Positions 8,497 to 49,153 of a stretch of DNA of 64,000 nt are shown here, piece by piece (position 1 is the stretch's first letter; every line of letters begins with the position of its first letter). The stretch is from Bacteroidales bacterium (GTDB lineage: Bacteria; Bacteroidota; Bacteroidia; Bacteroidales; F082), in the NCBI GenBank assembly GCA_017632935.1, contig JAGBQJ010000030.1, positions 1 through 64,000 of the forward strand. Direction: 5' to 3'. Below the pieces are notes generated by a model, which saw only the letters and a list, made by a program, of their open reading frames with translations, was not told the DNA's origin and did no database searches. Both the position numbers and the translations under genes were made by a program.

Positions 8497-8501
8497 TAGC
8501 C

Positions 8502-8912
8502 ATGAGGGTCTTCATTGATACTAACATTTTTCTGGACCTGCTTTGGCGACGCGAGAGATTTCTCGCTGATTCACTGAAAGTTTTTGATCTTGCTGTGGAT
8601 GGTCGATTCGAGTTGTTGATTTCGGATTTGAGTATCGCTAACATTAAGTACATAACGCGGAAAGATTATTCTGTGGATGAATTCTATAGGGTTATGTCAG
8701 TTTTCAGGCCGGTGTTCACCATTGTCCCCATTGGGGAGGAAGCGGTCGACCAAGCTTTTGCCGCTAAGGCCCGAGACTTTGAGGATGCCTTGCAGTATTT
8801 TTCAGCTGTGCAAGCCAAGGCTGATTATTTGTTGACACGGAATATCAAGGACTATGGCTTTGCATCGATAGAGGTGATTAGTCCGTCAGAGTTCCTTAAT
8901 AGGTTCTCTTAA
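8502..8912 (+). CDS. PIN-domain ribonuclease toxin (VapC-like)
   Basis: The 136-residue product has the PIN layout: Asp6 in VFIDTNIFLDLL, an acidic residue at Asp42 in LLISDLSIANI where the family often has Glu, Asp95 in DFEDALQYFSA, and TRNIKDY (112-118) with a final Asp. PIN toxins are Mg2+-dependent endoribonucleases that cut tRNA, rRNA or mRNA and are held inactive by a co-transcribed antitoxin. The length is typical. The upstream gene is the likely antitoxin. A strong terminator with a long T-run follows. The family is clear; the RNA target and toxicity are not visible in sequence. Confidence 0.85.
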   Translation: MRVFIDTNIFLDLLWRRERFLADSLKVFDLAVDGRFELLISDLSIANIKYITRKDYSVDEFYRVMSVFRPVFTIVPIGEEAVDQAFAAKARDFEDALQYFSAVQAKADYLLTRNIKDYGFASIEVISPSEFLNRFS

Positions 8913-8976: not shown

Positions 8977-9015
8977 AAAACGCGCTGTCTGGCGCGTTTT
9001 TTTTTTTTTTTTTTT
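8977..9015 (+). terminator. Terminator with a 19-base T-run
   Basis: AAAACGCGC pairs with GCGCGTTTT around a six-base loop and runs into 19 consecutive T. It ends the toxin-antitoxin transcript and insulates the giant operon. The long homopolymer is a likely site of length variation. Confidence 0.85.
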
Positions 9016-9131
9016 CGTTTTGTGTGCTTGCAAACCATTGAAAATAAAAGGCGTAACGCCTGTTACATTTATTTAGGGTTTTATAAGCCAAAAAATGCGC
9101 TATTGCCTTGTAAACATTGGGAAAAATTGCT

Positions 9132-9174
9132 TATCTTTGCACGCTTTTTATGCGCTAGCTCGCGTACGCGCGAG
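9132..9174 (+). promoter_or_regulatory. Promoter and leader hairpin of the giant surface-protein operon
   Basis: TATCTTTGC at 9132-9140 matches the -7 element and TTG at 9108-9110 is a plausible -33 element. The leader then contains a perfect six-base stem (9159-9164 with 9169-9174, CTCGCG/CGCGAG) closed by a TACG tetraloop, 23 bases before the ATG at 9198. A stable hairpin there could affect ribosome access or transcript stability. This is the only promoter of this type I see before the 40 kb array. Confidence 0.6.
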
Positions 9175-9197: not shown

Positions 9198-12100
9198 ATG
9201 AAAGAGTTAAAAAATACGATTCGACACTGGCACCCGTTGCATGTGGCTGCCGTTTTGCTGATGATAATGGCTTGGATGATGCCAATGAAAGAGGCTTGGG
9301 GACAAAACCTCCCGTTTGAGCCTACCATAGACGAAAACGACCCTATTCTCTATTGGATTGAAACTGTCGGTGCCACAGGTTTCTATGCTGTCCCTCACTC
9401 CAATAACTCCAACGCTTCAACCACCAATGCACCTACTCTGAGAGCCTTGTGGTATTTCAAGGCGTCGGGTGAAGAAGGGTACTATTACATCATAAACGAT
9501 GCAACGGGAAAGTATTTGAAAAAAACTGGTAACACAGGCAGTGACAACACTATTGGGGTAGCAGACCATGCCACTACTGACGATGACAAGTTCAAGTTCT
9601 CATTCGGTACCCCTCAAGGTATCACTGAAGGCAGTTGGGTGGTTTATCCTAAAGAAGCAGGAACAGCAGGTTGGTTGAGCAAAAAAAGCGGCAGTGCTCA
9701 GTATAATCTATGGCTTAAAGTGGCTAATTGGAATGGAACTCCTGTCGGAGATCCCAACTCCCAATGGAAGATTGTGCAAAGAGCTGACGTGCAATGGCCG
9801 AAATCCGGGTTGCCATTTCAGGTTTCAACTAGTAGCAGCGATAGGCATTACTACCGTATTAACCATGCGCAGTCTACACAATATAATCTCTCCTACGATG
9901 ACAGCGATTATGTGACCATCTCAACTGAAGATGACAGGAAAAAGGTTTGGTATTTCGAAGAGGCGGCAACTGATCCTGATATTAACAACCTCAGATATTA
10001 CAAAATTGTGAATGCACTGACGGGTAAATATCTGAAGTTTACGGCAACGACCATTAATGGAAGCAATCAAGATGATAAATTTATGTTGTCGGATTATGAT
10101 CCTGATAATGCAGACCGTTTCCAATTTGTTGTGGTGAATTCTTATGGAGGTAACCCTGGATATTCCATTATGCCTAAATTGGCGATGTCCAAATTTGATG
10201 TAAGCAATTACGCCAACAGTATGGTCCCGAAAGCTGTTAACAATAATAGTAGAGCCGCTTTGCGTAGTGATAGAAACAACAGCAACGCCCACTGGTGCTT
10301 TATTGCCACAGAATTCGTCAATACATGCGACCCTCCTGTTATTACAGTCACGTATGACGGGAATGGCGAGCCTACTAATGTCAGCATAAGTGCCGAAGAG
10401 GATGCTACGATCTATTACACCACTGACGGTAGCAATCCAGTTGTGCCTACTACGGGCAGCACTACATACACTGCATCGAGCAATCCTTACTCTTTCACGC
10501 CTGGTAGCGATGTATCTGTCATCAGGGCTGTGGCATCAATCAACCCTAATGGCAGCGACGTTTCGGGGCAGGCTTTTGAGTTTATCCGATATATTACGGT
10601 ATCCTCTTCCGATGTGATTATCAACAACTTGAATCTTGGTTTGAATCTTGGTTATCGTTTGGCAGAGAACTTCACTTCGAATGCAACCATAGGTACAGCC
10701 GAAACCCCATTCAGGGGTGCCATTGATGGCGATTATCATAGCTTCACCCTTAGCCACGCGCTGATTGGTGTGGCACAAGATGCCATCATCAAAAATATTG
10801 TGGTCAGCAGTGCCACGGTTAGCGGCAGCGGTAATGTGGGTGCTCTCGTGAACACAGCAAAAGGTGGCACCAAGATATACAACTGCGGTGTGCAGGATGG
10901 CAGCGTCAGTGGCGGCACCAACACGGGCGGCCTTGTCGGACTGATTGAGGTTGGTTCTTCGGTGCGCGTGGTGAATTGCTACAATTTTGCTGATGTGAGC
11001 GGCAGTAGTTATGCCGCTGGCATTGTGGGCAAGAATGATGGCTCAGTGGGAACAGTGCCATTTAACGGAAGCGTAGGTAAAGTGCGCATCGCTCTTTGCA
11101 TGATGTATGGCAATGTGACAGGGGCAACAAACATCTCGCCCGTATATGGCGGCAACCATCAGGACAATATTCAGAAATTCACCGAATACAACTATTGGCG
11201 CTACCGTTCAGGGATGGTCTACACAGCCTACAATGACCAAATGGCCATCGAAAGGGATGATTTCTTGACGCGCTTCCCGTTCTACACCCATATCCTCAAC
11301 ACTCACCGCGAAATGGCCGCTTTCTTCCTGTTTGGTGGAGAGACGACTACCAACGTGTCGACAATAAATGAAAATCAAATCAATGAGATGGGCCATTGGG
11401 TGCTGAAAAAAGACGTCGCTTCTTACCCCATCATCGAACCCTGGCAAACCAATACCAAAAAAGTGCTTGAAGCCCCAACGCCGAGCAACATCCTTACCGA
11501 GATGGGCACCAATGGCTATCTGACCATCACTGTTAAGATAGGAAACAACACCTATACACAAAACGCTCAAGGGCAACCGTATAAACTACCCATCACCGAC
11601 ATGGATGAAGAAAACTTCGACTACACTTGGGGTAAGGTGGTACTGCCCTTTGCCAATGAATTTGAGGTGAACTCCGACTACACAAAGATCTGCACAGGTT
11701 GGAAGATTACAAACGTCAACGGAGAAACCAGTTTCTCCATCCCAAGTGACGAACCTTATAATTTTTCTGACCGCAACAACAAGAAAAAGGACATTTATGA
11801 TGCAACGAATAACCCTTATATTTTTGCTCAAGGCGGCAACTATATCGTACCTCATGGCGTGACAGCTATCACCATTGAGGCCAACTTCGCCAAAGCCTTC
11901 TACTTAAGAGATGCAAATTATGAGATAGCTTATAGTGGAGACAAGAATTCAGAGCCTTTCGGCTACACAGGACGGACAGGTATCGCTGGTGGCACGCTCT
12001 CCACTTATCATGAACAACCGGTCTACAATACCTTGCTGTCGGCTTTGAGCGCGAGCGGAATGACTGCTTCTGGTACACCCCACACACAAGCTGTCGTATT

Positions 12101-13937
12101 GGTGGGTAATTTCCACATGGATGCAGAGAATCTGTCAAGCGTGACGAGTAAAGGGTTTACCATTATGAGCATCGATGCCGACAATAACCAGGAGCCTGAT
12201 TATGCCATATATTCAAACAATTCCAATGACCGTCCTCCCGTACCGCCTATGCGCTTTGACTTCGTCGCATTCATACCCATGGGCATGTCGTCGCATGTCA
12301 CTAACGCTAAGTTCTATCCCAACACCCCGATATGGAAACCTCGCGGATGGTTTGAGATTACTGAAACAGGCCTCTTGTTCGCCAACCAGTTTGAGATTGA
12401 ATCGAACAATTTCGTCGAAGCCAACGAGAGCAACTATCGCTGCGTCATCAACGGCGGCTATTTCACCCAGATGGTACGTAGTCGCGCTAATCCATGCACA
12501 AAACTGAAATTTTACCAAATAGGTGGCCATGCTTATGTGAAAGAGTTCTATCCTGGCAACCACAGCGCAGAAAGCAAAGTTAATACCCTTGTCCCTGTCA
12601 ATGTGACGGGAGGCGAGGTAGAGCAGTGCTTTATGACGGGATACGGAAAGGGGACGGCTTACGGACCGGACATCTATTTTTGGTGTGCGGGTGGCAAAAT
12701 CCACAAATTTTTAGCTGCTTATATGGAAAAGCCCAGACAAACCGAAAACAGTGATGGAAACGTGAACCTTACGGCCAAGATTGACCACGCTATCATAGGC
12801 CGCTTCTTCGGAGGAGGAACTACTTCGACAGCAAGAATTACAGGCGACATCAAAGTGACCATCAACAATAGTAAGGTTGATTTCTATTGTGGCGGTCCTG
12901 AGTTTGGCGACATGTCGGCGAACAAGACCGTCATCACAAACGCTACCAATACCATATTCAAGGAGTATTACGGTGCTGGATTCGGCGGCACGGCCATAAC
13001 CTATAGGAATGACAAGGATGATGGAAACGTCGCCCTTGATGCCACTGTTACTTATCCTGATTATTTCACAACCTATTATGTCGATAACACAAATCATAAG
13101 GGTCGTCTTTATTATTTGAATAACTATGGTTTGGGCAACTGCTACAAGTTCGAGTTCCTTATGCACTCAAGAGGCCATAGAGGTGTGGCCCGTCACTATA
13201 CGGGCTTTGCATCGTTCTCATTGGCCACTACCGGCAATGTTACTAACAATCTCGACAATTGCACTATTTTGGAAAGTTTCTACGGCGCAGGGTGCCAAGG
13301 TAAGGTGAATGGCACGGTGACCTCAACACTCACGGACTGCACCGTGCTGGGCAGCGCTTTTGGTGGTGGCTATAAGGCGGCAGCCAACGAAGTGGATGTC
13401 TATCCATTAACTAAGCCACTTCCTTCTTCTGTGTTTACAGCCGAGACGGGCATCTTTTCCGATTTCGGCACGGTGGAACCAGAAATATTTACTTGGAGAC
13501 AGGGAGATGGTGAGCATTCCAACGAGGCCGATGATGAAGGAAAAATACTCTATACTGCCAAAGAAAATGTGATAAAATTGACTGACCTTGGCAATGTCAC
13601 GGGTGCCATCACCCTTACCCTCGATGGTCATACCGTGGTGAGTAATAACGTGTTTGGCGGCGGCAATGAGAGCAAGTCGCTCAATAATGCCACTGTAACC
13701 ATCAAAGGCACATCAGAGGTGAACGGTAATGTCTTCGGTGGAGGCAACAAGGCTTTTGTAGGAATCAATACTACTGGAACACCAGGCAATACCACAGTAA
13801 AACTCCAAGGCAGTGCCACGGTTCGCGGCAATGTTTATGGTGGCGGCAACCAAGGTGAAGTCGGCGGTAACTCCTCGGTCATTTTTGAACAGGAAATACC
13901 GTCCTCCAATCCTAGTGGTTCGCCACAGCAGCTCTGA
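9198..13937 (+). CDS. Giant exported protein 1: lectin-like front, Gly-rich repeats at the end
   Basis: The 1579-residue product starts with a long signal peptide (residues 1-36) ending AWGQ. A TTG 18 bases upstream is a less likely start. Residues of about 45-370 hold two related beta-rich segments sharing YYxIxNAxTGKYLK, which resemble ricin-type beta-trefoil carbohydrate-binding units. A chitobiase C-terminal-like region follows near 375-450 (ATIYYTTDGSNPV), then GLUG-like repeats near 510-620 (GNVGALVN, TGGLVGL, AAGIVGKN). The middle is unassigned. The last 400 residues move into the family repeat (RFFGGGTT, YGAGFGG, GNVFGGGN, GNVYGGGN). It has no T9SS sorting domain. It is the first gene of the array, and gene 2 follows after 55 bases. 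Its distinct front suggests a binding or tip role; that is inference. Confidence 0.88.
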   Translation: MKELKNTIRHWHPLHVAAVLLMIMAWMMPMKEAWGQNLPFEPTIDENDPILYWIETVGATGFYAVPHSNNSNASTTNAPTLRALWYFKASGEEGYYYIINDATGKYLKKTGNTGSDNTIGVADHATTDDDKFKFSFGTPQGITEGSWVVYPKEAGTAGWLSKKSGSAQYNLWLKVANWNGTPVGDPNSQWKIVQRADVQWPKSGLPFQVSTSSSDRHYYRINHAQSTQYNLSYDDSDYVTISTEDDRKKVWYFEEAATDPDINNLRYYKIVNALTGKYLKFTATTINGSNQDDKFMLSDYDPDNADRFQFVVVNSYGGNPGYSIMPKLAMSKFDVSNYANSMVPKAVNNNSRAALRSDRNNSNAHWCFIATEFVNTCDPPVITVTYDGNGEPTNVSISAEEDATIYYTTDGSNPVVPTTGSTTYTASSNPYSFTPGSDVSVIRAVASINPNGSDVSGQAFEFIRYITVSSSDVIINNLNLGLNLGYRLAENFTSNATIGTAETPFRGAIDGDYHSFTLSHALIGVAQDAIIKNIVVSSATVSGSGNVGALVNTAKGGTKIYNCGVQDGSVSGGTNTGGLVGLIEVGSSVRVVNCYNFADVSGSSYAAGIVGKNDGSVGTVPFNGSVGKVRIALCMMYGNVTGATNISPVYGGNHQDNIQKFTEYNYWRYRSGMVYTAYNDQMAIERDDFLTRFPFYTHILNTHREMAAFFLFGGETTTNVSTINENQINEMGHWVLKKDVASYPIIEPWQTNTKKVLEAPTPSNILTEMGTNGYLTITVKIGNNTYTQNAQGQPYKLPITDMDEENFDYTWGKVVLPFANEFEVNSDYTKICTGWKITNVNGETSFSIPSDEPYNFSDRNNKKKDIYDATNNPYIFAQGGNYIVPHGVTAITIEANFAKAFYLRDANYEIAYSGDKNSEPFGYTGRTGIAGGTLSTYHEQPVYNTLLSALSASGMTASGTPHTQAVVLVGNFHMDAENLSSVTSKGFTIMSIDADNNQEPDYAIYSNNSNDRPPVPPMRFDFVAFIPMGMSSHVTNAKFYPNTPIWKPRGWFEITETGLLFANQFEIESNNFVEANESNYRCVINGGYFTQMVRSRANPCTKLKFYQIGGHAYVKEFYPGNHSAESKVNTLVPVNVTGGEVEQCFMTGYGKGTAYGPDIYFWCAGGKIHKFLAAYMEKPRQTENSDGNVNLTAKIDHAIIGRFFGGGTTSTARITGDIKVTINNSKVDFYCGGPEFGDMSANKTVITNATNTIFKEYYGAGFGGTAITYRNDKDDGNVALDATVTYPDYFTTYYVDNTNHKGRLYYLNNYGLGNCYKFEFLMHSRGHRGVARHYTGFASFSLATTGNVTNNLDNCTILESFYGAGCQGKVNGTVTSTLTDCTVLGSAFGGGYKAAANEVDVYPLTKPLPSSVFTAETGIFSDFGTVEPEIFTWRQGDGEHSNEADDEGKILYTAKENVIKLTDLGNVTGAITLTLDGHTVVSNNVFGGGNESKSLNNATVTIKGTSEVNGNVFGGGNKAFVGINTTGTPGNTTVKLQGSATVRGNVYGGGNQGEVGGNSSVIFEQEIPSSNPSGSPQQL

Positions 13938-13992
13938 TTAACCATACTGAGAAACTCAACATTGACGAATGGCAGAAAAATTCCGATAAACA

Positions 13993-18756: not shown

Positions 18757-18827
18757 ATAGAATTGGTAGAAGACAATAGAAAATGGCTATGAAAAACCTA
18801 CTGATTTTAAAGAACGATTAACCGAAA

Positions 18828-27980: not shown

Positions 27981-28050
27981 TAAAGAGCGTAACAAACATA
28001 GCATATACAGAAACCTCATCACATAATAAGCATAAAACGTATCGTTAAAG

Positions 28051-43000: not shown

Positions 43001-46000
43001 AAATCAATGGCAATGTGTACGGAAGTAGCTACGACGCTACGGAAGGCAATGCCCCCGACCCCGATGTCACGCCTTGGCCTTCGGGCGAGACCTATTGGTC
43101 TTCGTTCGTCAACATCACGGGCGGCACCATCGGTGAAGACGTGTATGGCGCTGGCTATGGCGGCACCGTCTATGGCTCTAACTGCGTCCTTATCGGTCTC
43201 GAAGCCATCAAGAAAGCACCTACCTACGTTAATTTGAATGGTTCCCATAACGATGAAAATCAAGCCAACAAGTACGCCAAAGACGGCATTTCTGGAAATG
43301 GCTATCCAACGCCTGCCAAGATCAAGATCATGGGTAACGTCTACGACGGCTCCGACCACTTCGGCTCTGGTGAAGAACCCATGTGGAACAACTTCGACAT
43401 CAGAGGCTACAGCCAGACCTTCCTTGACGGCACGGGCTATAACACCGCCGATGATAATGAAGGCTCTACAGACAAGCCTTACATGAACATCGAAGGCGGT
43501 CTCTACGGCTGCGGTACGTTGTGTGAATCGGGTAAGAAAGGCCGTCAAATCCTCGTCAGGAATTACGGCGAGCGCATCACCAAGGGCGGCGAAGGTGCCG
43601 ACAAAGACAACATGGAGGATGCCACCCGCACCCTGACCACCATCCAGCGTGGCGGTTATGTCTTGCTCGACAACTCGAATATCCACTTGTCTGGTGCCAT
43701 CGACATCAGTAAGAAGTTCCCCGACAGAAAGTTTGGCGTCCTTCAGGTGGACAACGGCTTCTATGCAACCAACGCCAGCGGCCTGGTGCTTGGTGAAGTC
43801 GGTGCTCCGGCTTGGATGGACTCCATCACGGAAGTCAGGAGCTTGTATCTGAGAGGCACCAACACCACTTCCTATGACCATATCGACGCCATGCAGAATA
43901 GTGACTACTGGGAGATGGTTGGCATCAATTACAGCAACAATCGTCTGTATCGTACGGTAACCAGCACCGGACAGGATGATTTCTTGGCAGTCGATAAAGA
44001 AAATGTCATCATCTTCAACGGCAACTCGAAGCTTTGGGTGCGCAATTACAATACAACAGCAGATAAGATTTTATACGGACAGTTGTACGGTTTCTTCCGC
44101 GTGAAAGCTGATTACTACCAGCCCGAAGGCACGGAGACCTTTGCATACGCCCGCCCGAAACTGAGCCCGCATGTGAATCGCATCGATATCTCAGATATCG
44201 TTCCTGGTTTCAATCCTGACCAAGACAGGCTCAACCCGGACGATGGCGGCTTCCTGAGTTACAATACCAGCCACAACACCTTCGTGAAAGGAGGCATTAC
44301 TGTCTTGGGATGGGAATATCTCAATGCATGGGATGGCGATGATGGCGGTAATACTTTTACCAACACGAAGCAATATCCTTATTTCAATATCAGTCAAGTT
44401 TCGAAGTCTGATGTCAATTCGCTGAATACAGAGGATTATCGTGTATGGATGCTGCCCTACACGCTGGGTAATAAGTGGTATGTTGACGGCCGCGGCATCG
44501 GCAACGGTGGCTGGGGCCAAGACAAGGACCACCAAAACAATTGGGGCGATTATCCTGACATGCCTAAGCTGAGCATTAGCGGAGCCAATGGCATCTGCAA
44601 TGACGAAACTATTAACCTGTCGCGTCCCAAGTTTAATCCTGCGGAAGATGTCATCTTTGTGGTGGGTCCTGTCAGCGCACTCGCGGAAAACGAAAACCTG
44701 AACAAATGGCCTACTGAGCATCCTTTGAAGTTGTACCGTTATCCTGGCGGCCATCCGATGAGTAATGGTCAAAAAGATGCCACCCACATAGGCAGTTCTC
44801 CATATCCTTCGACACCTCCTGCCGATACCGACTATGCTGGCTTGGTTGGAAATGAAGAGACCGCCTTATCTACCGCAGGCCCGGGTCCCAACTATGGCGC
44901 AATAATCAATGCCAACAGGACGGATAAACCTATGGTGATGGACAATGTCGTCGTGAATGGATTGTATACCTACGATGCAGTGGACATGCAGGAGTTGGAC
45001 ATTCCTGCAGCCGCAACGCATCCCATCAACTTCGCTGATGAAAAGGTGAAGGTCCACATGCCGATGGTGGTCACCACGCCAGGTGCCAAACTTACCCTGA
45101 AGGGTGGCACGGTTTTGGAAGGAGGCTACAACAACACCGATGCTTCTGGAACCTTTACCATTGGTGACAACAGTGTGAAGAACTTCTATCTGAATCCTGA
45201 CTTCAATGATCTTGCCTTCAATGCGACGGGTAAGTACAATGGCGGCGCCCTGTATGTGGCTACTGACCAACCGGCTGTTGGAGAGGATCCCGCTGTTCCC
45301 ACTACGGTGAACGTGGAAGGCAAGGTGACCATTACGGGTAATTTGCAGAAGAACGGCAGTTCGACGATCAAGAGCAACGTGTATCTGCCCACCTTCGACA
45401 AGAGCCTTACCATAACGGCTCCATTGGCTGTCGGTACAGAAATCGGCGTGACCAGCCCCATCAGGAACACGTCGGACGATTATAGGGATAACACCTTGTC
45501 GCCGGTGGCTATGGTCGAAAAGAGCGAAGCCACGCCTGCAGCTAATGGTGATATCGCATCGACGGTATGGTCGCAAGGCAACTTCCTCGACGACCAAGAC
45601 TGGTTCTTCGGCAACGGTGGCCACACCACCTATTATGATAACTTAGGTTACGAAGGTGCTGGTAACGAGTATCGTTCGCTGTACTTCGGCTGGACCTGGG
45701 CCAATGTGGTCAGGGAAGCACCTTCGGGATTCGACGTTAGCAACATCGACTCGAAAGAAGACTTGGCCTGGCTCATCAGCCTGAATACGGGCATGAATGG
45801 CGCGACCGCTACCAACTTCTCCGGTCAAGACCTCTTGCAGAAGACGGACCTCGACATGAAGCAGTACGTCTGGGTGCCGATAGGTGATGACAGCCATAAT
45901 GGTTTCGAGCACAAATCCTTTGCCGGTCACTTCGATGGTCAGGGTCACCTGATTAAGAATATTAATATTGATTATATCGGTAGGGGAGACACCCGCTATG

Positions 46001-48816
46001 AGCATCAGGACTACGGATTGTTTGGTCATGTCAATGGCTCTGTTGAGCGCACCTTCGTGGTGAGCGGCACGGTCAGTCCCAAGGTTTCGATCGATCTCCT
46101 CAACACCGATATGTTCAACATCGGTGGTTTGGCCGGCGGCCTCCAGAACGCAACGCTGGCCAACAGCGAAGCTGCGCTTCATATCTATGCTCCAGACGAG
46201 GCCAATTACCATGTTGCTGCAGGCGGCTTGGTGGCCAAGGTGATGCCAGGTGGCGAGATACACTCGTCGATGGCCATGCCTGTGATGGAGACTACTGACA
46301 AAACCGTTGAAAATGCTACTGGAGCGTCAGTGGGTGGTCTGGTAGGTAATGCCGCGGGTGGCAATGTCTACAATTCGTTCGTGAATGCGCAATTCAATGT
46401 GTATGGTAATCCCAAGGCGGGTGGCTTGATGGGCAGCAATGATGGAGCGAAGGTGGAGAACTGTTATGTGGCCTTTAATAATACCCCTACAGAGGATCTG
46501 AACTTTGACGGCCTTGTAAGTGATGGGTACAGTGACTTCGACAGCTGCTATGTCCAGACTGGCTATCCATACATGGGCGTGACAGAAGACCGCGGTCACC
46601 ACTTTACGGCCACCAACAGCTCCGACTTGTATGGTTACATGTATAAGGACAACACGGTGAAGAAGAGTGCGACCGTCGCAGGTGCTACAGTCGACACGGC
46701 CATGTTCCGGATGCTGAACCACTGGGTGGACGGAAGGAACAAGACGGGGAACAAATACGCCCGTTGGTCGCGTCCGGGCTTGTCGGAAATCAACGGCGAC
46801 TATCCTGTGCTGTTGCTCGACGACATTGATGGTACTACGGCTCACCAAGGTGACTTCAGCACGGTGGCTACCATCCATGGTACTAATGTTTTGCAGTATG
46901 GCGGTACGGTACGCGATGGTAAACAGCTTGACGGTGCTATTGAACGAATGGTTGCAGGCAGTGCAAAAGATGCAGGCGATGCCCTCTTCGTTTATGGCGA
47001 CATCACAGAGACACCGAGCAAGAATCCGGCCTCGAATACCAAGATTAGCATCCAGGAGGATGTGGCCATCATGAATCCGGGTACCCTGAGTGCCTATGAC
47101 AACACCTATGTCGGTATCACCTTCGACAACTCGTTTGGTAAGGCGACGGCGACGCCGGGCATGAACGATGGCCTCTTCGGGTCGGATAACCTGGATCTGC
47201 CCCGCGACTGGCACATGTTCTCCACACCGCTGAGCAATGCGCCGCTGGGATTCGATTATCTCGGCGACAATGTGGCTGGCAGCCAACACAAAAACAACCC
47301 GTGGGAGAATCCTGATGGTGAGTTCAGCTGGATTACCACACGGCCCAACAACGAGGTTTCTGATGCTGATGGTTTGGGTTACCGTTACTGGATGAAGTCT
47401 TATGAAACGGCAGACGGCTATTTCCCGACCACGCGTGGTTATGACTTGACTGGCAACGTGAGCGACTGGTTCATTGAGAACAGTGACGAATGTCCTTCCT
47501 CAGGCAACACGTTCCTCAACCGCTATCCCTACGGTATGGACTTCTACACTTGGAACGAGCCGGAATACCACTGGATCAACTTCAAGCGCAACGGTCCTAA
47601 CCACTGGCACAGCGATACGCCACATGTCCATCTGGACTATAAGCCTGCTGAGGTGAAGGAAGGACAGACTCCATACACCACGAACCAGAATGAGGACAAC
47701 CTTATTGTGGGACGTGGCTATATGGCCGCCATCGCTACCGAGACCTTCATGCAGAGCCACGGCTTGCTGAATGCAGGAGACCAGAGCATTATACTGACGA
47801 ATAATGGCTGGAAAATCAAAGGCTGGAACATGGTGGGCAATCCTTTCCATGGCTATCTTGACTTCAATGAACTTGGTAAAGCTGACGGACCCAATGAAGA
47901 TGTACTGACGCATCACGATAATAATGGAGAGGATGAAGGCGCGTTCTATGTGATTTATGATGCCGACAAATACCAGAACAGGAATGCCAGTACAGCCTAC
48001 AGGTACTATCCTGTGAAAGGATCCCCAGAAGGAGCCGACTATGCCGACCGCTTCCTGCATCCGCACCAAGGCTTCTATGTGAAGACAGACACGCATTTGA
48101 GTGAGTTGAAGATTAATGAGAATATGTTGGTGACGCGCGACTTTGTTGAGAAAAATGGTGGCAGCCATTTCCGCGCTACACAACCGTCCTATCCTTTGGT
48201 CAACCTTTACTTGAACAGCGACAAGGGCTGCGCCGACGTGACGGTCATCGAGTTTGAACGTCCCGAGTGGGGTGGTGCACGCAAGGTGAAGGAGCTGCGC
48301 GTGGGTGATGGCTTGTTCTACGCCCACCACGGAGACACCTATTATGCCGCGCTCTTCGCCAAGGAAGGCATCGACCGCGTGCCGCTGTGGTTTGAGGCCA
48401 AGGAAGACGACATCTTCACCATGAAGTGGAACATGGCCAACGGCAACTTCCACAGCATGTACCTCATCGACAACATCACGGGCGTGCAGTACGACATGTT
48501 GCGGAACGACACCTACACCTTCGAGGGCCACAAGGAGGACTATCCTTCGCGCTTCCTCATCGTCTTTGACTTGACCGATGTGGAAGAGTTTGAGGATGAC
48601 AACGAGCATCCGTTTGCCTTCTTCAATGGCTCCGAGTGGGTGGTCACCGGCGAGGGTGATTTGGAATTCATCGACATGCTTGGCCGCGTGTTGGCCAAAT
48701 CGCATATCAGCGGACAAAACAGGATCACGTTGCCTATGGTGGCTGACGGTCCTTATCTGTTCCGCCTGACCAACCATAAGGAAACTAGAATTCAAAAAGT
48801 CATCGTAACAAAATAG
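28051..48816 (+). CDS. Giant exported protein 4 (6921 residues) with T9SS sorting domain
   Basis: This gene of 20.8 kb encodes a signal peptide (to VASAQ; an ATG at 28081 is an alternative start), then about 5000 residues of Gly-rich repeat with some 85 strict [YF]GG motifs by hand count and about 20 YGSG, FGSG or YGAG variants. It carries one copy of super-repeat 1 and three copies of super-repeat 2. Unlike the other giants it has long, variable loops, some very acidic (YDENEDEDEQ, FDSDEDDEDP). After residue 5150 the repeat stops. A mixed region follows, then GLUG-like repeats (GGLAGGL, GGLVGNAAGG, GGLMGSNDG) around 5900-6150, then WNMVGNPF near 6590 and the beta-sandwich preceding the sorting domain. 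The last 60 residues are a type A T9SS signal, so the protein should cross the outer membrane and be attached to the cell surface or released. Confidence 0.9.
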   Translation: MEYTYKRQYRMKFWKARRKTFLLMAMLLSGGVASAQVVVKGNVYGGCEYGEVVGNTTEKGNTSVNINGGTIGDPLSLKARVLDNNAQFSERVNQGNVYGGGDGYKITGHTGDNNDIPVFDPNAGRVQRNTEVIIGGNAVVRRAVYGGGNIATVGMCSVNETTGVATYTSGGQTNVTITDNALVGPKKTDLTAPSEAALTQASTDFGETISQSMYIDTAFKYLGGNEGWVFGGSRGVSGEELKHLSFVNTTIVAINGNAQLMTVFGGGENGHVQTSTNVTIGGNAVVGGIPLHGSGSITIPSGSGEYSGATFTAAVNETYEDGFGVGSMVYRGSVFGGGKGTDFVSWLSPKLYDYDAGRVYGNSNVTVEETPTIYNRVYGGGAIASVGTFTYASNSHTVTGISGNTGHTYVTVTGGTIGTDGHNNGEVYGGGRGYPGRAQKATETTTTTLHQAPDLAYVGHTHVTVEGGAVKNSVYGGGANGHVQGDATVLIKQTNSSIPTTIGIEDLGTWHSNVYGAGGGTAQYKDTKIVNGNPEEFTHHSITAGRVFGDVNLTIEGGKIWHNVYGGGSLASVGTYLAKDSNNQTIPYVGGGNITINITGGEIGKDGNDNGMVFGSGRGEVVAPGAFLDSLTYAAYTTVNIGSGTVNQETGEATNLSGSAKINGSVYGSGENGHVYLQSTINIFGGTIGIAAADYDPANPDPHFTHRGNVYGAGCGTDKYDSDNDTHGDTYSPNSGYVWGNTFINIYGGYISRNVYGGGAIGSVGVLGGTVPHTNTSTQAALSWPYDLSFGSIPNESGTMVSTGKATINIRGGHIGTKAAPMTSGNVFGSCRGDVGPLGVMEDLAFARETEVTVNFTPTVTSMDDVDENNTITPNVIIGSVYGSGEDGSVYENTKVTVTNGLIGGSVFGGGSGTTTYKGRLKSTNGTDDNPNDDYWMENVDLRSITAGKVYGNTVVEINGGYVLHNVYGGGNLASVGKGNYIGYGEMTSSTSGPVDPPGNSGKCTVTLKGGTIGTTGLPDENGNLNGYVYGSSRGTTFPVVNNPQGTPRYDYSRDFFLGYANKTEVNIGDANTGPTIMGSVFGGGDNGHVRWHTNVTVTNGEIGVAYEPEQDEHITDDKWVYRGNVHGAGRGIDKIVGSTTDYCQSAGSVTLNTTVTVNGGIIHRNVYGGGLLSTIGPPPTGYNPGTSTCYVNINGGTIGEELTSGDEPLYGGDIFGGSRGILDMQHANLNSFASASNTEVNIDNNANVLGNVYGGGELGQVKLESQVNLIAGTTKGSVFGGGKGDVTEVIAGAVKGNSTVDMTGGTVERSIYGGGKMGSVGTFTAHTTYNYTSGTHSGSSVDVPTACEDDTGLATVIVKGGFVGKDGSLMPWTNHNIEDDDRGWIFCGAQGVADSITYYKAPALGVVGSTYLEINKATGENPPAAPVITASVYGGSENGLVLGNTHVVIADGQIGTGHYVENGVHKWDPAYNETKWTNAIAAIGNPTSINTIAAQFHECDAWTYASPYQVYDIYANETSHPNNDSGHADYQMAALEATNGQSFFGNVFGGGSGYYPIATGVWRRTAGQVNGNAVVDITGGHILTNVFGGNEMTDVKGKCTINMSGGTVGIPRTVTQIQNNPTQGNIYGAGMGDFRSMFDTYTDVNETEVNVTGGTVFGSVFGGSEEGHVLGHAVVNIGQGEGKTTRIGTTGYSGYDGHVFGGGRGNAKKLNRKDPDPEKDYNIANFASGRVGGKATVTMTNGTVMGNLYGGGLVARTGVGETGSFDTYVTGTSYDSQNHGVTTVALSGGIVGNPTSNNGTDANKGYYLLLSEEQMGNVYGGGRGDKADFIEDDLGRAAKAVVNITSTSSGYPTIYGSVFGGGQMANVGHWRGYGANQGYAEGTSLTTVTITGSPIIGTAREFSNDYATSSHPQTEFETINEKTRLHHTRTGNVFGSGQGAVRLKHNEQGNLIGTGHPEGLEHGHCGQTQVDISGSPTIMSSVYGGADRGVVWGNTDVRIAGGTIGTLANADDTNNDNKYYYGSVYGGCYGMDAYYHMHLPTDTPEQVVDSINKKVGHVYGKTYVELTGGTVHGNVFGGGNLGTVDGLCEVKISKTGSGTGPEIGPLESGTSMNASVYGGGKGFYEDPNELRKKYANVGSTKVTVEGGNIKGSVFGGGSESHTLGNTEVIVHNGANIGTDGLSTWDGNIFGGGRNFLNTNNTNGRVAGNVTITMDGGSIQGSIFGGGRMALTGVDEDGNFPTTSWTVADHGNVTINVSGTTSGSDNNITYNTVIGNGSDQGIHLLTGSDESVGDIFGSGKGDTKEYDDILAGCVTNTTINITGSPRIHGAVFGGGEMASIGWLDSDNNIIDGTGEATIKIGDSEADKPVIGTYLELNHDYLDGSITINGHGYPRSPWTIIETEGGVERLVHTCTGNVFGGCQGDVDFEDWDDEVSSTWNNWPYMGRSKKSTITVNGGTIMGNVFGGPEQGTMDGNTTITINGGTIGTQVTASNNDKYYFGGVYGAGYGSDDSNEDNHAITVNGVATTAKMRAGRVYGNVHTDVFGGTINGDVYGGASFAYVGGEGTSPNGDVELNIGYKTTTTDSETDEEVDNFYGEAKILGSVYGANNRSGTPYGKVEVNVYKTKHWVDEQLGSNYAPETPEDGWTHELLMDNTNGGTTAYPKPQQYALREVFGGGNRASFTPNQTGREFSTNGRRTTVHIWSCENTIRDLYGGGNAADIGTSANNADIDLIVDGGRFYRVFSGGNGESGTPANIYGWANNTINSGVINELYGGGNQAGNILHTNLTINEEPNGCAEFIDNTFGGSNEAPIIGDVETDLLCGEGSAYEFYGGTNNADIYGNVTLNVHGGFTENLYGGSKGSERPANIKKFPTIPDPRPEPGQEGYDAMLDRVYQYMIDHHIEAGYGGNVIVNLYGGTIKNVFGGSNISGNIEGNIWVNVIDIENADCPLDITNLYGGCNNTDYEPVDHTAANPVISPVVNVVHIKETNTTPGYIRHNVFGGSLGHNSDVVANPVVNIGYDATTMAGYIPAGYTVKPAAQRNVKVAGNVYGGGEEGIVNGSTTVNVFEGEVGLMEYFDSDEDDEDPTLDVVNHVKYDGTNYGGSVFGGGMGSKEDADHGRVKGNSTVNIKGGHVQYNVYGGGELASVGEHTPVYETVNEEPVLVDFVPDEDNGLATVNVTGGQVGPAPMVGTFGGKTYNIPIALNGYDGYVFGGGKGEGDDAATAYKTFANVNSTSVTVQMPMDDGNHANRIWGSIFGGAEDGHVLGDAYTYFRSGLMGTDGTTSYDGNIFGGGRNYSRKNTTAGRVGGNTHVEMTNGQIYGNIYGGGRLALTGTALNGIKPLGEGRYQALRDDPDANTKKYGHTFVYVKGGTVGNDTKVDVAVGNNQTVKMPLIETFSTYSMGNVYGGGKGSEEGLVDYPKTSALLVSLTKNTTVEISQEDDDVPTRIWGIVFGGGETANVGQFSWHQVGDNHGTVSDIRISEGLAKVRIHGGIIGADRAKMRYEKDPDYPYYPRFNDDLGYVYGGCEGISDDPDKVDDDNNPVYPDVQAGPTSASTTSLINLLATVNNTDVRITGGWVKASVFGGGESGHVRGNTKVTLKGGQIGAGYDENEDEDEQPYTDGIGDTPNQFVNPATTEIITSNSLKGTYHWDYGETLHPGEENEVTIYSPYDPVDVMNGTKPSDGKSWFGNVFGGGSGWFPYIKNEGTAQDPDYKSYWNPESGKVWGNTEVIIADSIRNGNIVSKPHILNNVYGGNEMTDVGGNAIVTMNGGTIGVPRISDDINTLPTFGYLFGGGCGDPRAESLALNNVGGKTVVTVTGGIIYGSVYGGAEDGHVIGNTEVYVGQGEGKTTIIGCAGTSYDDGNIFGSGRNYLLKNYTGGRVGGNTLVEMTGGLALGSVYGGGRNAMVGLDEDLIEIDSDTHEVQALQNGPAHGKTTVRVKGGTVGNLAKMRETGHTIGYVYGGGKGSKVGPAGHPAASPLLISLVKNTEVFISQDAADVPTRIYGRVYGGGEVANVGNYGWKPVATAPNISEIQLLSDGQAGQAKVDVSGGVIGLDNMQMKTASGIPDDFGHVFGGGEGWTQKLSDSPVIDVEGNHLVELMATVGNTDVTIDGSAFVLGSVYGGSSEGHVLTNTLVKIKGGQIGAGNGVVDSEGHNRPYTDDEWDYAQYQSLPECAQWDYEEGGAPYDPNIIEGGKPKPGKNGATFYGNVFGGGSGYYPYGVDTDGNSQWLRSAGQVRGNTRVEVTGGHILTSLYGGCETTDVGTYRYSNVIHGEDHVSGGQSTVIMSGGTLGVPRTLAEIQAHPVTCYVFGSGKGDPRFYFNTWTNVWNSKVEIKGTAWVYGSVFGGGEEAHVLNDVDLDVSGNAKIGTLGYSYVDGNIFGGGRGFTGKALTAGTVGGNIDITITGGTMLGSVYGGGRLASVGTYLVDKEYNNGSGMVPNPYYGHFQPGDDHGKITINITGGTIGNDYETATLTHTNSDTYGGNVFGGCMGKYIAWSGSGDKPIWPSLARAKQTVVTISGTAKIKNSVYGGGEIGTVRDNTTVNINGGTIGADYGTSPNKMYCGSVFGGGKGIMEMSTDNDSTMVAAYLAGRVYGNTYVNINGGQVYENVFGGGKVASVGWVKTDGTFVNGEATVKMTGGIIGPLDYSGVNAYIFGGPKGGQNDDMKPYCNVNSTSVEVDYTDSNANRVWGSLFGGGSDGHVLGNASVTLKNGTVGTEGATGYDGNIFGGGRNYHELSLTAGRVGGNITVNMQGGQLMGCIFGGGRQGLTGIDMNGTAVDDNNHGNVTVTMSSGTIGKSTEAHSYMGQVFGGGKGDNTKDDDDVDFYKRMGETRSTNVTISGGKVYGNVYGGSENGRVLQNAEVTINGSALIGAESSESAFQGNVYGGGLGMEPYAGTDPAEDNPNAGHVFGLSRVNIKGGTVTKSVFGGGNKGLVNVARIVNVEAGTVYEDVFGGNRTIPDAEGVVNNSLKTVNIRGGQINGNVYGSSYDATEGNAPDPDVTPWPSGETYWSSFVNITGGTIGEDVYGAGYGGTVYGSNCVLIGLEAIKKAPTYVNLNGSHNDENQANKYAKDGISGNGYPTPAKIKIMGNVYDGSDHFGSGEEPMWNNFDIRGYSQTFLDGTGYNTADDNEGSTDKPYMNIEGGLYGCGTLCESGKKGRQILVRNYGERITKGGEGADKDNMEDATRTLTTIQRGGYVLLDNSNIHLSGAIDISKKFPDRKFGVLQVDNGFYATNASGLVLGEVGAPAWMDSITEVRSLYLRGTNTTSYDHIDAMQNSDYWEMVGINYSNNRLYRTVTSTGQDDFLAVDKENVIIFNGNSKLWVRNYNTTADKILYGQLYGFFRVKADYYQPEGTETFAYARPKLSPHVNRIDISDIVPGFNPDQDRLNPDDGGFLSYNTSHNTFVKGGITVLGWEYLNAWDGDDGGNTFTNTKQYPYFNISQVSKSDVNSLNTEDYRVWMLPYTLGNKWYVDGRGIGNGGWGQDKDHQNNWGDYPDMPKLSISGANGICNDETINLSRPKFNPAEDVIFVVGPVSALAENENLNKWPTEHPLKLYRYPGGHPMSNGQKDATHIGSSPYPSTPPADTDYAGLVGNEETALSTAGPGPNYGAIINANRTDKPMVMDNVVVNGLYTYDAVDMQELDIPAAATHPINFADEKVKVHMPMVVTTPGAKLTLKGGTVLEGGYNNTDASGTFTIGDNSVKNFYLNPDFNDLAFNATGKYNGGALYVATDQPAVGEDPAVPTTVNVEGKVTITGNLQKNGSSTIKSNVYLPTFDKSLTITAPLAVGTEIGVTSPIRNTSDDYRDNTLSPVAMVEKSEATPAANGDIASTVWSQGNFLDDQDWFFGNGGHTTYYDNLGYEGAGNEYRSLYFGWTWANVVREAPSGFDVSNIDSKEDLAWLISLNTGMNGATATNFSGQDLLQKTDLDMKQYVWVPIGDDSHNGFEHKSFAGHFDGQGHLIKNINIDYIGRGDTRYEHQDYGLFGHVNGSVERTFVVSGTVSPKVSIDLLNTDMFNIGGLAGGLQNATLANSEAALHIYAPDEANYHVAAGGLVAKVMPGGEIHSSMAMPVMETTDKTVENATGASVGGLVGNAAGGNVYNSFVNAQFNVYGNPKAGGLMGSNDGAKVENCYVAFNNTPTEDLNFDGLVSDGYSDFDSCYVQTGYPYMGVTEDRGHHFTATNSSDLYGYMYKDNTVKKSATVAGATVDTAMFRMLNHWVDGRNKTGNKYARWSRPGLSEINGDYPVLLLDDIDGTTAHQGDFSTVATIHGTNVLQYGGTVRDGKQLDGAIERMVAGSAKDAGDALFVYGDITETPSKNPASNTKISIQEDVAIMNPGTLSAYDNTYVGITFDNSFGKATATPGMNDGLFGSDNLDLPRDWHMFSTPLSNAPLGFDYLGDNVAGSQHKNNPWENPDGEFSWITTRPNNEVSDADGLGYRYWMKSYETADGYFPTTRGYDLTGNVSDWFIENSDECPSSGNTFLNRYPYGMDFYTWNEPEYHWINFKRNGPNHWHSDTPHVHLDYKPAEVKEGQTPYTTNQNEDNLIVGRGYMAAIATETFMQSHGLLNAGDQSIILTNNGWKIKGWNMVGNPFHGYLDFNELGKADGPNEDVLTHHDNNGEDEGAFYVIYDADKYQNRNASTAYRYYPVKGSPEGADYADRFLHPHQGFYVKTDTHLSELKINENMLVTRDFVEKNGGSHFRATQPSYPLVNLYLNSDKGCADVTVIEFERPEWGGARKVKELRVGDGLFYAHHGDTYYAALFAKEGIDRVPLWFEAKEDDIFTMKWNMANGNFHSMYLIDNITGVQYDMLRNDTYTFEGHKEDYPSRFLIVFDLTDVEEFEDDNEHPFAFFNGSEWVVTGEGDLEFIDMLGRVLAKSHISGQNRITLPMVADGPYLFRLTNHKETRIQKVIVTK
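32341..33660 (+). repeat. Super-repeat type 2, copy 1 (about 440 residues)
   Basis: The series is ASVYGGSENGLVLGN, FFGNVFGGGSGYYP, GGHILTNVFGGNEMTDVKG, GGTVGIPRTVTQI, GSVFGGSEEGHVLGH, GQGEGKTTRIGTTG, DGHVFGGGRG and GRVGGKATVTM. The order is repeated in two later segments. Confidence 0.85.
35854..37263 (+). repeat. Super-repeat type 1, copy E (470 residues)
   Basis: The series is GSVYGANNRSGTPYGKVEV, YALREVFGGGNRASF, CENTIRDLYGGGNAADIGT, CPLDITNLYGGCNNTDY, ISPVVNVVHIKETN, ANPVVNIGYDATTM and GNVYGGGEEGIV. It is the only type 1 copy in the largest protein and divides its two series of type 2 blocks. The usual YGCNN cysteine is Ala here. Confidence 0.85.
38794..40116 (+). repeat. Super-repeat type 2, copy 2 (441 residues)
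   Basis: The series is ASVFGGGESGHVRGN, GGQIGAGYDE, WFGNVFGGGSGWFP, LNNVYGGNEMTDVGG, GGTIGVPRI, GSVYGGAEDGHVIGN, GQGEGKTTIIGCAG, DGNIFGSGRNY, GRVGGNTLVEM and DVPTRIYGRVYGGGEVANV. A partial block before it (37.8-38.5 kb) shares the last part. Confidence 0.87.
40414..41682 (+). repeat. Super-repeat type 2, copy 3 (423 residues)
   Basis: The series is GSVYGGSSEGHVLTN, GGQIGAGNGV, FYGNVFGGGSGYYPY, GGHILTSLYGGCETTDVG, GGTLGVPRTLAEI, GSVFGGGEEAHVLND, DGNIFGGGRGF and NSVYGGGEIGTV. It lacks the GQGEGKTT element found in copies 1 and 2. Confidence 0.86.
48640..48813 (+). other. T9SS type A C-terminal sorting domain of giant protein 4
   Basis: The final residues follow the type A pattern: a first strand (GDLEFIDMLGRVLAKSHI), the GxNRITLPMVADGPYLFRL centre, and a basic end (TRIQKVIVTK). 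The conserved LGR, the GxY/F-L-F-R-L strand and a terminal K-V-I-V-x-K are present. No comparable tail is found in the other three giant proteins. Confidence 0.85.
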
Positions 48817-48829
48817 GGAGGAATAAGTT

Positions 48830-49096
48830 ATGAAGAGTTTGAATAGAAAAATAGTCTTGTTTGTAGTTGTCCTGCTCATGTTGGCAGGGCCGCTTAAGGC
48901 GCAAGTGTACATCATGGAAGATGAGTTCGAGGGTACACTGCGCTCGGGTTACGAGGACTTTGAATTGACAACGCCTTATGAAGGTGGTGATTCGGACCAG
49001 CAGTATGCACCTGTTGGCAACGGCCTGTTGGCTTTGACCTTGCTGGGTGGTGCCTATCTGTTGACAAAACGAAAGAAAAAAGATGAAGAATGTTGA
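48830..49096 (+). CDS. Small exported protein with a C-terminal membrane tail
   Basis: The 88-residue product has a signal peptide ending PLKAQ, an acidic mature part of about 40 residues (EDEFEGTLRSGYEDFE), and a tripartite C-terminus: the short motif YAPVGNG, a hydrophobic helix (LLALTLLGGAYLL) and a basic end (TKRKKKDEEC). This layout resembles sorting tails in which a short motif, a membrane helix and a basic cluster direct cleavage and anchoring, but no matching enzyme is in the window. It starts 13 bases after giant gene 4, behind GGGAGGAA at 48816-48823, one of the few strong Shine-Dalgarno sites here, so it belongs to the operon. An anchor or assembly partner of the giant proteins is inference. 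The final Cys is unusual after a basic tail. Confidence 0.8.
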   Translation: MKSLNRKIVLFVVVLLMLAGPLKAQVYIMEDEFEGTLRSGYEDFELTTPYEGGDSDQQYAPVGNGLLALTLLGGAYLLTKRKKKDEEC

Positions 49097-49145: not shown

Positions 49146-49153
49146 TATTTTTG
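49146..49153 (+). promoter_or_regulatory. Promoter -7 element of the acyl-CoA ligase gene
   Basis: TATTTTTG lies 28 bases upstream of the start codon, within the 77-base gap after the giant operon. No clear terminator hairpin was found in that gap. Confidence 0.6.

What the first reader, a model, noticed from the sequence alone, without database searches (positions are those of the whole stretch)
9198..49096. 40 kb operon of four giant repeat proteins plus a small partner
Five consecutive same-strand genes encode about 13,200 residues in all. Gaps are 55, 71, 70 and 13 bases, with one recognisable promoter before gene 1. All have signal peptides with Gln at the cleavage site. Genes 1-4 share the [NSD]-[VI]-[YF]-G-G motif (about 180 strict copies by hand count). 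Alternating V-x-V stretches and Gly/Asn turns suggest a beta-solenoid, hence a long surface fibre or scaffold made of several cooperating giants. I know of no named system with this composition.
Basis: partly seen in the sequence, partly recalled or inferred. Interest (0 to 1): 0.85.

Follow-up and report, generated by a model that had tools for sequence, protein, structure and literature searches.

The report
Split giant surface fibre, rumen Bacteroidales
An uncultured gut bacterium carries a conserved operon that appears to build one very long surface fibre from four separately encoded pieces plus a small membrane partner; some related bacteria encode both ends of the fibre in a single giant gene.

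Summary
Four giants (1,579, 1,587, 3,050 and 6,921 aa) and an 88-aa partner lie in one direction behind one promoter. Strict motif copies are 106, not about 180; gene 1 has only three. The repeat matches no Pfam or NCBIfam family over cut-off and no PDB sequence; among 395 Bacteroidota genomes sampled only the own genome matched.

The locus is syntenic within a genus of uncultured gut Bacteroidales, between an EamA transporter and an acyl-CoA ligase. Eight loci fuse gene 1's module and gene 4's C-terminus into one 3,300-4,900-aa chain. On a quick tree the one-gene/several-gene state changed at least three times. Only the last giant has a type IX secretion signal; most non-terminal pieces stop mid-repeat at a conserved point, and the terminal giant starts in a fixed register.

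Best reading: one T9SS-displayed adhesive fibre, encoded in pieces, with a beta-helix shaft. Gene 5 belongs to an almost genus-restricted family that follows a subset of T9SS cargo genes. The fold is unconfirmed: the structure server was busy at all 22 tries. End-to-end assembly, multi-chain export and gene 5's role are inferred.

The parts
9103..9139 (+). Bacteroidetes-type promoter: TTG elements at 9103 and 9108, TATCTTTG at 9132-9139, 66 bases before gene 1
   Evidence: a TAnnTTTG before giant 1 in 8 of 8 ligase-flanked loci with an intact first giant, with a TTG at the expected distance in 3 of the 8
8977..9000 (+). intrinsic-terminator-like hairpin followed by a T run, upstream of the operon
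   Evidence: consensus scan only; 3 sites found in the region, 1.5 expected
9198..13937 (+). gene 1, 1,579 aa: signal peptide, ricin-like region, Fn3_assoc/CHB_HEX_C_1, large mixed region, short repeat end; no T9SS sorting domain
9447..9614 (+). RicinB_lectin_2 match in gene 1 (residues 84-139, best stretch)
   Evidence: 39.8 bits, cut-off 25.6; in 10 related first giants only 4 sub-threshold matches of 17-18.5 bits
10368..10475 (+). Fn3_assoc / CHB_HEX_C_1 match in gene 1 (about residues 391-426)
   Evidence: the same domains over cut-off in the N-terminal 500 aa of 9 of 10 related first giants, split and single-chain alike
13993..18756 (+). gene 2, 1,587 aa: signal peptide then repeats to the end; a likely counterpart as a separate gene was seen in G140 among the ten split loci read
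18828..27980 (+). gene 3, 3,050 aa: signal peptide, N-terminal region with a sub-threshold fn3 match, repeats, C-terminal InlB-B-like domain
27753..27962 (+). Flg_new_2 (divergent InlB B-repeat) domain at the end of gene 3 (residues 2976-3045)
   Evidence: E 1.7e-11
28051..48816 (+). gene 4, 6,921 aa: signal peptide, about 5,100 residues of repeats, conserved C-terminal module, short T9SS type A sorting domain
46321..46389 (+). GLUG motif in the C-terminal module of gene 4
   Evidence: E 7.7e-6
48643..48807 (+). T9SS type A sorting domain (short form; TIGR04183 model positions 17-71)
   Evidence: 25.6 bits, over the cut-off of 23; 20.7 and 21.8 bits, under it; matched in 14 of 14 aligned members at E <= 0.01
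48830..49096 (+). gene 5, 88 aa: signal peptide, short acidic segment, P-[VL]-G-x-G motif, hydrophobic segment, Lys/Arg tail
49146..49153 (+). separate TAnnTTTG before the acyl-CoA ligase; probable boundary of the transcript

Best explanation
The five genes are one transcript that makes one T9SS-displayed giant adhesive fibre, encoded as several chains. Gene 1 supplies the cell-distal tip (Fn3_assoc/CHB_HEX-type domains, in the window also a ricin-like one). Genes 1-4 together supply a beta-helix-like shaft of about 25-26-residue turns. Gene 4 supplies the conserved C-terminal module and the only recognised type IX sorting domain, so the fibre is held to the outer membrane by its C-terminal end. 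Genes 1 and 2 end mid-repeat at a conserved point, and genes 2 and 4 begin in the repeat straight after signal-peptide cleavage, so the chains probably stack end to end non-covalently and gene 4's sorting domain serves the assembly. Gene 5 is a dedicated small membrane partner of cargo with this short sorting domain, probably helping to hold or hand over the giant. Shown: operon layout, synteny, fused and split forms, conserved termini, single sorting domain, partner linkage. Inferred: solenoid fold, end-to-end stacking, export of several chains on one sorting domain, adhesion, gene 5's role.
For: Synteny between EamA and acyl-CoA ligase. One chain carries the gene 1 module and the gene 4 C-terminal module, in gene order, in G118, G100, L081, L083, L090, L086, L093 and L096, and an alignment shows such chains continuing the repeat where split gene 1 stops. 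One-gene versus several-gene form changed at least 3 times on the tree. T9SS sorting domain in gene 4 and its 13 aligned relatives; none over cut-off in genes 1-3 or in 10 non-terminal relatives, so 13 of the 19 non-terminal giants read were scanned. Mature N-terminus to first motif Tyr is 8 residues in 9 of 9 terminal giants of split loci whose start could be read (G123 has a second possible site at 10), and in one non-terminal giant of G132. 12 of 19 non-terminal giants end in the open repeat. SprA present. One promoter in relatives. Gene-5 family member at -4 to +50 bases behind 47 of 68 matching CTD ORFs; in this genome behind 6 of 13 short-form CTDs versus 0 of 106 others, a split chosen after seeing the data.
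Against: I found no description of multi-chain T9SS export in the few searches made (listings, passages). Of 19 non-terminal giants, 6 (the window's gene 3 among them) end in an InlB-B-like stretch and 1 in a broken ORF, and gene 3 starts with other domains, so not every junction is repeat to repeat. Some single-chain giants show no gene 1 match: L094 and the second giants of G118 and G125. The partner is missing behind the giants of G140, behind the fused chains L086, L093 and L096, and behind 21 of 68 CTD ORFs. The window's sorting domain is under cut-off in two of three scans. The relatives are MAG or unnamed assemblies.
Confidence: 0.5

Rival explanations
1. Genes 1-4 make independent giant proteins that share a repeat family but do not form one fibre; genes 1-3 use an unrecognised export signal or act in the periplasm, and co-transcription only co-regulates them.
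For: Each gene has its own signal peptide; genes 1-3 have no recognised T9SS signal; gene 3 carries its own N-terminal region and an InlB-B-like end. Type C sorting domains differ in sequence from types A and B (PMC10202324, passages read), so unknown signals are possible.
Against: Single-chain versions joining the first and last modules; repeated one-gene/several-gene changes; conserved end register; in the ten split loci read, the recognisable sorting end lies on the last giant alone.
Confidence: 0.27
2. The several-gene form is decay: genes 1-3 are remnants of an ancestral single chain cut by mutation, or are partly assembly artefacts of metagenome-assembled genomes, and only gene 4 still works.
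For: G123's gene 3 region is broken into several ORFs and G128's gene 1 region has no long ORF on the coding strand; sources are mostly metagenome assemblies by title; the single-chain form exists.
Against: In the window and in G110, G111, G083 and G104 the pieces are long intact ORFs, each with a signal peptide; piece ends are conserved rather than random; the split form lies on several branches.
Confidence: 0.13
3. Gene 5 is not a helper of export but a sorting-tail substrate: its P-L-G-x-G + hydrophobic segment + Lys/Arg tail is cut by a sortase-like enzyme and the acidic peptide is displayed with the giant.
For: Resemblance to LPXTG, PEP-CTERM and PID-CTERM tails; two of eight relatives scanned pass the LPXTG cut-off of 15.9 bits with 16.2 and 17, gene 5 just misses it with 15.6.
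Against: PID-CTERM reaches 20.6 of 26 bits at best and PEP-CTERM 13.4 of 16; no exosortase (PF09721) in the genome. Other candidate proteases were not searched.
Confidence: 0.1

Closest known systems
Type IX secretion type A CTD cargo (giant cell-surface proteins of Bacteroidota)
   Same: Signal peptide plus C-terminal type A sorting domain on gene 4; SprA translocon in the genome
   Different: Companion giants without a recognised CTD, an unnamed repeat family, and a small membrane partner gene behind the CTD gene
sprB operon of Flavobacterium johnsoniae (sprB with sprC, sprD, sprF; passages and a reference title seen in PMC10202324)
   Same: A gliding adhesin encoded in an operon with further genes, including a partner dedicated to that cargo
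   Different: SprB has a type B CTD and needs the beta-barrel SprF; here the CTD is type A, the partner is an 88-aa protein with one C-terminal hydrophobic segment, and the genome's PorP/SprF-family hits lie on other contigs
Apilactobacillus kunkeei Giant1-5 (PMC12863079; abstract and one section read)
   Same: Five consecutive genes for very large extracellular proteins, four of them with a predicted beta-solenoid domain
   Different: Gram-positive; proteins of 3,000-8,000 aa; solenoid only at the N-terminal end, followed by alpha-helical or other repeats; SH3b-like C-termini; no T9SS (recalled: T9SS is confined to Bacteroidota and kin); no single-chain counterpart noted in what I read
PID-CTERM / LPXTG / PEP-CTERM tail proteins (NCBIfam)
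   Same: Motif, hydrophobic segment, basic tail at the C-terminus of the gene 5 family
   Different: PID-CTERM and PEP-CTERM cut-offs not reached; LPXTG reached by two paralogues only; no exosortase in the genome
Short CTDs of Prevotella intermedia (PMC11969387, passages read)
   Same: A shortened type A CTD
   Different: The passages read mention no linked small partner gene

Membership tests
T9SS type A CTD cargo (gene 4) | N-terminal signal peptide | tested here: met
   Direct reading only: hydrophobic stretch ending ASA-Q; no signal-peptide program was available
T9SS type A CTD cargo (gene 4) | TIGR04183/PF18962 domain at the C-terminus | tested here: met
   25.6 bits, cut-off 23; 20.7 and 21.8, under cut-off; PF18962 15.9 of 27; TIGR04183 matched in 14 of 14 members at E <= 0.01
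T9SS type A CTD cargo (gene 4) | T9SS machinery in the genome | tested here: met
   SprA/Sov 1,946 bits; 118 CTD hits over the cut-off; PorV and PorU not searched
T9SS CTD cargo (genes 1-3) | C-terminal sorting domain | tested here: not met
   No NCBIfam hit at E <= 1 for genes 1-3; in 10 non-terminal relatives one sub-threshold TIGR04183 match, 13 of 23 bits and not at the end
sprB-type system | Type B CTD with adjacent PorP/SprF-family barrel | tested here: not met
   Type A CTD; PorP_fam hits lie on other contigs, one over and one under cut-off
PID-CTERM small proteins (gene 5) | NF046080 over its curated cut-off of 26 bits | tested here: not met
   No hit for gene 5 at E <= 1; best of eight relatives scanned 20.6 bits
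LPXTG-anchored proteins (gene 5) | TIGR01167 over its curated cut-off of 15.9 bits | tested here: not met
   Gene 5 15.6 bits; two paralogues pass with 16.2 and 17 bits
Beta-solenoid (parallel beta-helix) proteins | Coiled parallel beta-strand fold | not tested
   Structure server busy at 22 of 22 tries; PDB sequence search with the repeat and gene 1 profiles found nothing at E <= 1
Apilactobacillus Giant1-5 | SH3b-like C-terminus and alpha-helical repeats in Giant1-3 | tested here: not met
   No SH3b match in Pfam scans; the repeat is V-x-V/G-G-rich

The most novel reading that the evidence does not exclude
A split-chain giant fibre: several giant repeat chains without a sorting domain fold in the periplasm, stack end to end in register onto one CTD-bearing giant, and leave through the type IX translocon as a multi-chain assembly guided by one sorting domain and by a small membrane partner that serves a short-CTD subtype. 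Evolution has switched repeatedly between the one-chain and many-chain forms of the same fibre.
Probability: 0.3. Interest if true: 0.82.

Novelty: new variant of a known kind. Interest (0 to 1): 0.63.

Why it matters
If right, type IX secretion can export assemblies of several chains on one sorting signal, and bacteria can build very long fibres from separately translated pieces whose ends match in register, which would relax the limit that a single gene sets on fibre length. It also supplies a natural experiment, since the fibre exists as one chain and as several in related species. The gene-5 family would be a type A counterpart of the dedicated partners known for type B cargo, in uncultured gut bacteria whose attachment machinery I found no account of in the papers searched.

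Tried and rejected
Structure prediction of the gene 4 repeat (alignment A2, residues 35-600) was asked (22 tries); each was answered 'busy, 100 jobs are waiting'. No model, so no fold search. Alignment A3 (end of gene 1) was made but never submitted for folding.

Relatives of the repeat outside the genus: none in plasmid or phage records at E <= 1e-3; 114 pattern matches but none confirmed in viral contigs; only the own genome in samples of the class (1 of 295 at E <= 1e-20) and phylum (1 of 395 at E <= 1e-6). The genome searches rest on a loose first look that can miss repeats. PHROGs gave nothing for gene 2 and gene 5 at E <= 0.01.

Considered and rejected: the Gln after the signal peptide as a special feature (ordinary Q-rule); gene 5 as PID-CTERM (cut-off not met); an exosortase route for gene 5 (PF09721 absent); Rfam features and tRNAs in the window (none). 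The lag-correlation test for a solenoid was weak and the control segments also rose at some of the same lags, so it is not used as proof. A zinc-metalloprotease family (ZmpA) touched 7 of 14 C-terminal modules and the M26 N-terminal region passed its cut-off in 5 of 10 first giants; I saw no protease domain in the Pfam scans and take these as shared GLUG-like sequence. Paper searches for 'PID-CTERM' and for giant T9SS repeat proteins showed no listing that described this system; only this library was searched, and those listings were not read further.

Rows dropped before counts: of 69 CTD ORFs found in the 67 named loci, 1 was dropped for having under 350 bases downstream. In the tree, CTD ORFs under 900 aa, on the other strand, or identical in the last 400 aa to one already taken were left out; 15 of 65 rows got no one-gene/several-gene label, and many of the 39 'single' rows are CTD proteins with few motifs. 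The label 'single' was set by rule (upstream neighbour without three motifs) or by me for L096, L077, L087 and L086, cut at their 5' end; nine 'split' labels were likewise set by me from fuller stretches. Spacings of 60 or more were left out of the period scan.
Full report
1. The observation. Five same-strand ORFs fill 9198-49096: 1,579, 1,587, 3,050, 6,921 and 88 aa, with gaps of 55, 71, 70 and 13 bases. The strict motif occurs 106 times (3, 21, 21, 61), not about 180; a looser form occurs 217 times. In 200 shuffles per gene the strict count never passed 3. Gene 1 carries the repeat only in its C-terminal part. A TTG...TAnnTTTG promoter stands before gene 1 and none in the gaps before genes 2-5.

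2. What the proteins contain. Gene 1: ricin-type lectin-like, Fn3_assoc and CHB_HEX_C_1 matches. Gene 3: a C-terminal InlB-B-like domain. Gene 4: a GLUG motif and a type A T9SS sorting domain at the end. The sorting domain scores 25.6 bits (cut-off 23) in the whole-genome search and just under cut-off in two scans of pieces (20.7 and 21.8); all 14 members of the C-terminal alignment match it at E <= 0.01, best 1.5e-8. Genes 1-3 have no NCBIfam hit at E <= 1. The repeat matches no Pfam or NCBIfam family over cut-off (two stray weak matches of E 0.04-0.05) and no PDB sequence at E <= 1. The genome has SprA, 118 sorting-domain hits over the cut-off, and no exosortase of PF09721.

3. Where it occurs. 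The gene 4 C-terminal 1,321 residues match in 77 of 149 genomes of the family; all but three of these 77 are of the window's own genus. Of the 67 named loci, 17 titles name a herbivore host or gut site (cattle, goat, sheep, yak, buffalo, deer, horse), 38 carry RUG identifiers (rumen uncultured genomes, recalled), and 12 name neither; one of these 12 is 'bacterium F082', now Candidatus Alcium sp. F082, and one locus of the first group is labelled Prevotella sp. The repeat profile was found in 1 of 295 genomes of the class and 1 of 395 of the phylum, each time the own genome.

4. Synteny and gene number. The locus lies between an EamA transporter and an acyl-CoA ligase in G110, G123, G111, G083, G104, G100 and G118 and in G128, and next to the ligase in G137, whose contig begins inside the locus. 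In all 15 named loci for which the script reported the ligase, a gene-5 relative lies behind the last giant (with L084 settled); some of the 15 are near-copies of each other. The number of giants varies: four in the window; three in G110, G111, G083, G104 and, with the middle one broken, G123; one in G100 and G118. G132 and G140 carry several giants without the ligase beside them.

5. One chain or several. In G118, G100, L081, L083, L090, L086, L093 and L096 a single ORF matches gene 1 in its first part and the end of gene 4 in its last part, in gene order (L086 and L096 were cut at the 5' end there, and the full chain of L086's genome has 4,860 aa). Some single-chain giants show no gene 1 match: L094 and the second giants of G118 and G125. 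An alignment of 15 sequences, read with the true ORF ends, shows the gene 1 module ending soon after its last N-[VI]-Y-G-G-G-N in split loci and running on into further repeats in single-chain loci. On a tree of 65 C-terminal regions (quick method, SH-aLRT support, midpoint root; 11 split, 39 single, 15 unlabelled) the label needs 4 changes, at least 3 by well-supported branches; shuffled labels need 10 on average, so the state is also clustered. I read this as repeated interchange, which argues that the pieces act together.

6. The ends. Of 19 non-terminal giants read in ten split loci, 12 end in the open repeat, in K-V-x-G-N-[VI]-Y-G-G-G-N-x-G-x-V-x-G-x-T-K-V-x-V-N-G or a variant plus a short tail; 6, the window's gene 3 among them, end in an InlB-B-like stretch (a Pfam match in the window only, similarity by eye or BLAST elsewhere); 1 is a broken ORF. 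The last strand starts 13 residues after the last motif Tyr/Phe in 11 of the 12 (22 in the window's gene 2). In 9 of 9 terminal giants of split loci whose start could be read, and in one non-terminal giant of G132, the predicted mature N-terminus lies 8 residues before the first motif Tyr (G123 has a second candidate at 10); gene 2 and its G140 counterpart lie at 12 and 11; the 7,383-aa ORF of G140 had no readable start of this kind. G083/G104 and G110/G128 are close pairs, so these are not independent. Y-to-Y spacings (n = 1,424, 12 loci) peak at 25-26 and 33-34. A 19-residue end plus an 8-residue start would make a turn of about 26-27 residues, so the chains could stack in register. That is inference. 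No sorting domain over cut-off was found in 10 scanned non-terminal relatives.

7. Transcription. In 8 of 8 ligase-flanked loci with an intact first giant (G128, without one, left out) a TAnnTTTG lies 50-111 bases (in G111 also 212) before the first giant; a TTG at the expected distance was found in 3 of the 8. None was found before the 13 later giants or the small gene of these loci, but those gaps are at most 75 bases and three of them have no bases to search. Seven of the eight have one 28-49 bases before the ligase; in G111 the ligase was not among the ORFs tested. An exception outside this set: G132 has one 22 bases before its last giant. The motif occurs 0.22 times per kb on the window's + strand.

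8. Gene 5. It has a signal peptide, a short acidic stretch, P-[VL]-G-x-G, a hydrophobic segment and a basic tail. A profile finds 12 copies in the own genome at E <= 1e-6, a match in 97 of 99 genomes of the genus and in 46 of 46 of the better ones, and in only 4 of 247 genomes of the order, three of them in this genus. In the own genome 6 of the 12 copies lie 11-39 bases behind a sorting-domain ORF (one copy is broken), 5 lie 3 bases before, or overlap by 4, a lipoprotein-like gene, and 1 stands alone. All 6 belong to the 13 sorting domains whose match begins at model position 10 or later; none of the other 106 has a copy (6 of 13 versus 0 of 106, Fisher p = 5e-7); this split was chosen after seeing the data. 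In the named loci 47 of 68 related sorting-domain ORFs with room downstream are followed by a family member at -4 to +50 bases; those loci were fetched for their sorting domain, so this measures linkage only. The partner is missing behind G140's giants and behind the fused chains L086, L093 and L096.

9. How it most likely works. A fibre of one or more chains is exported through Sec and type IX secretion, held by the sorting-domain end, with gene 1's domains at the far tip. Of 10 related first giants, 9 carry Fn3_assoc/CHB_HEX_C_1 over cut-off and 5 the M26 N-terminal region, while the ricin-like match stays under cut-off (4 of 10), so the ricin tip is firm in the window only. The introduction of PMC11969387 (passages read) says that cargo folds before passing the 36-stranded Sov/SprA barrel, so export of a folded assembly is conceivable but not shown. 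If all turns stack, 217 motifs at 0.48 nm per turn (recalled rise) give about 0.1 micrometre; about 9,150 repeat residues at 25.5 per turn give at most about 0.17. Binding of plant or host glycans is a guess from the tip domains.

10. Known parallels. SprB of Flavobacterium is a type B cargo that needs SprF (PMC10202324, passages). Apilactobacillus kunkeei carries five consecutive giant genes, four with predicted solenoid N-termini (PMC12863079, abstract and one section). Neither has the mix found here. I place it as a new variant of a known kind: a giant T9SS surface protein, with an unnamed repeat, a several-chain form and an almost genus-restricted partner family.

11. Limits. No structure was obtained. 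The relatives are MAGs by title or unnamed assemblies, some with broken ORFs (G123, G128). Genome counts are samples of larger groups. The central step, end-to-end stacking with shared export, is untested. Checking this report against its calls changed several statements but none that required other odds.

Noticed in passing
8245-8912: A PIN-domain protein (PIN_3) behind an 83-aa ORF, a likely toxin-antitoxin pair, sits between EamA and gene 1. In G083 and G104 a different pair of small ORFs lies just before EamA, and in G111 a 514-aa ORF sits between the first two giants.
   Followed up: partly
Own genome, L067, L068, L197, L198, L199: Five gene-5 paralogues sit directly before, or overlap, lipoprotein-like genes of about 480-720 aa; the three scanned have no Pfam match. 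In G014 (L222, L223, L224) single ORFs of 632-750 aa begin with the small-protein module, perhaps fusions.
   Followed up: partly
L228:1958-2794: One ORF in G104 holds part of a gene 4-like C-terminal module and a complete gene-5-like protein, with no sorting-domain match by my profile; fusion or decay not decided.
   Followed up: partly
L175/L176 and L177/L178: G118 and G125 each carry a second single-chain giant (4,713 and 4,799 aa) with its own gene-5 relative, without the EamA and ligase flanks.
   Followed up: partly
32062-34269 and 47500-48915, minus strand: Long antisense ORFs (735 and 471 aa) inside or over the end of gene 4; probably a by-product of the repeat's codon make-up.
   Followed up: no
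Own genome, whole: 118 T9SS sorting-domain hits over the cut-off in a 2.86-Mb assembly.
   Followed up: no
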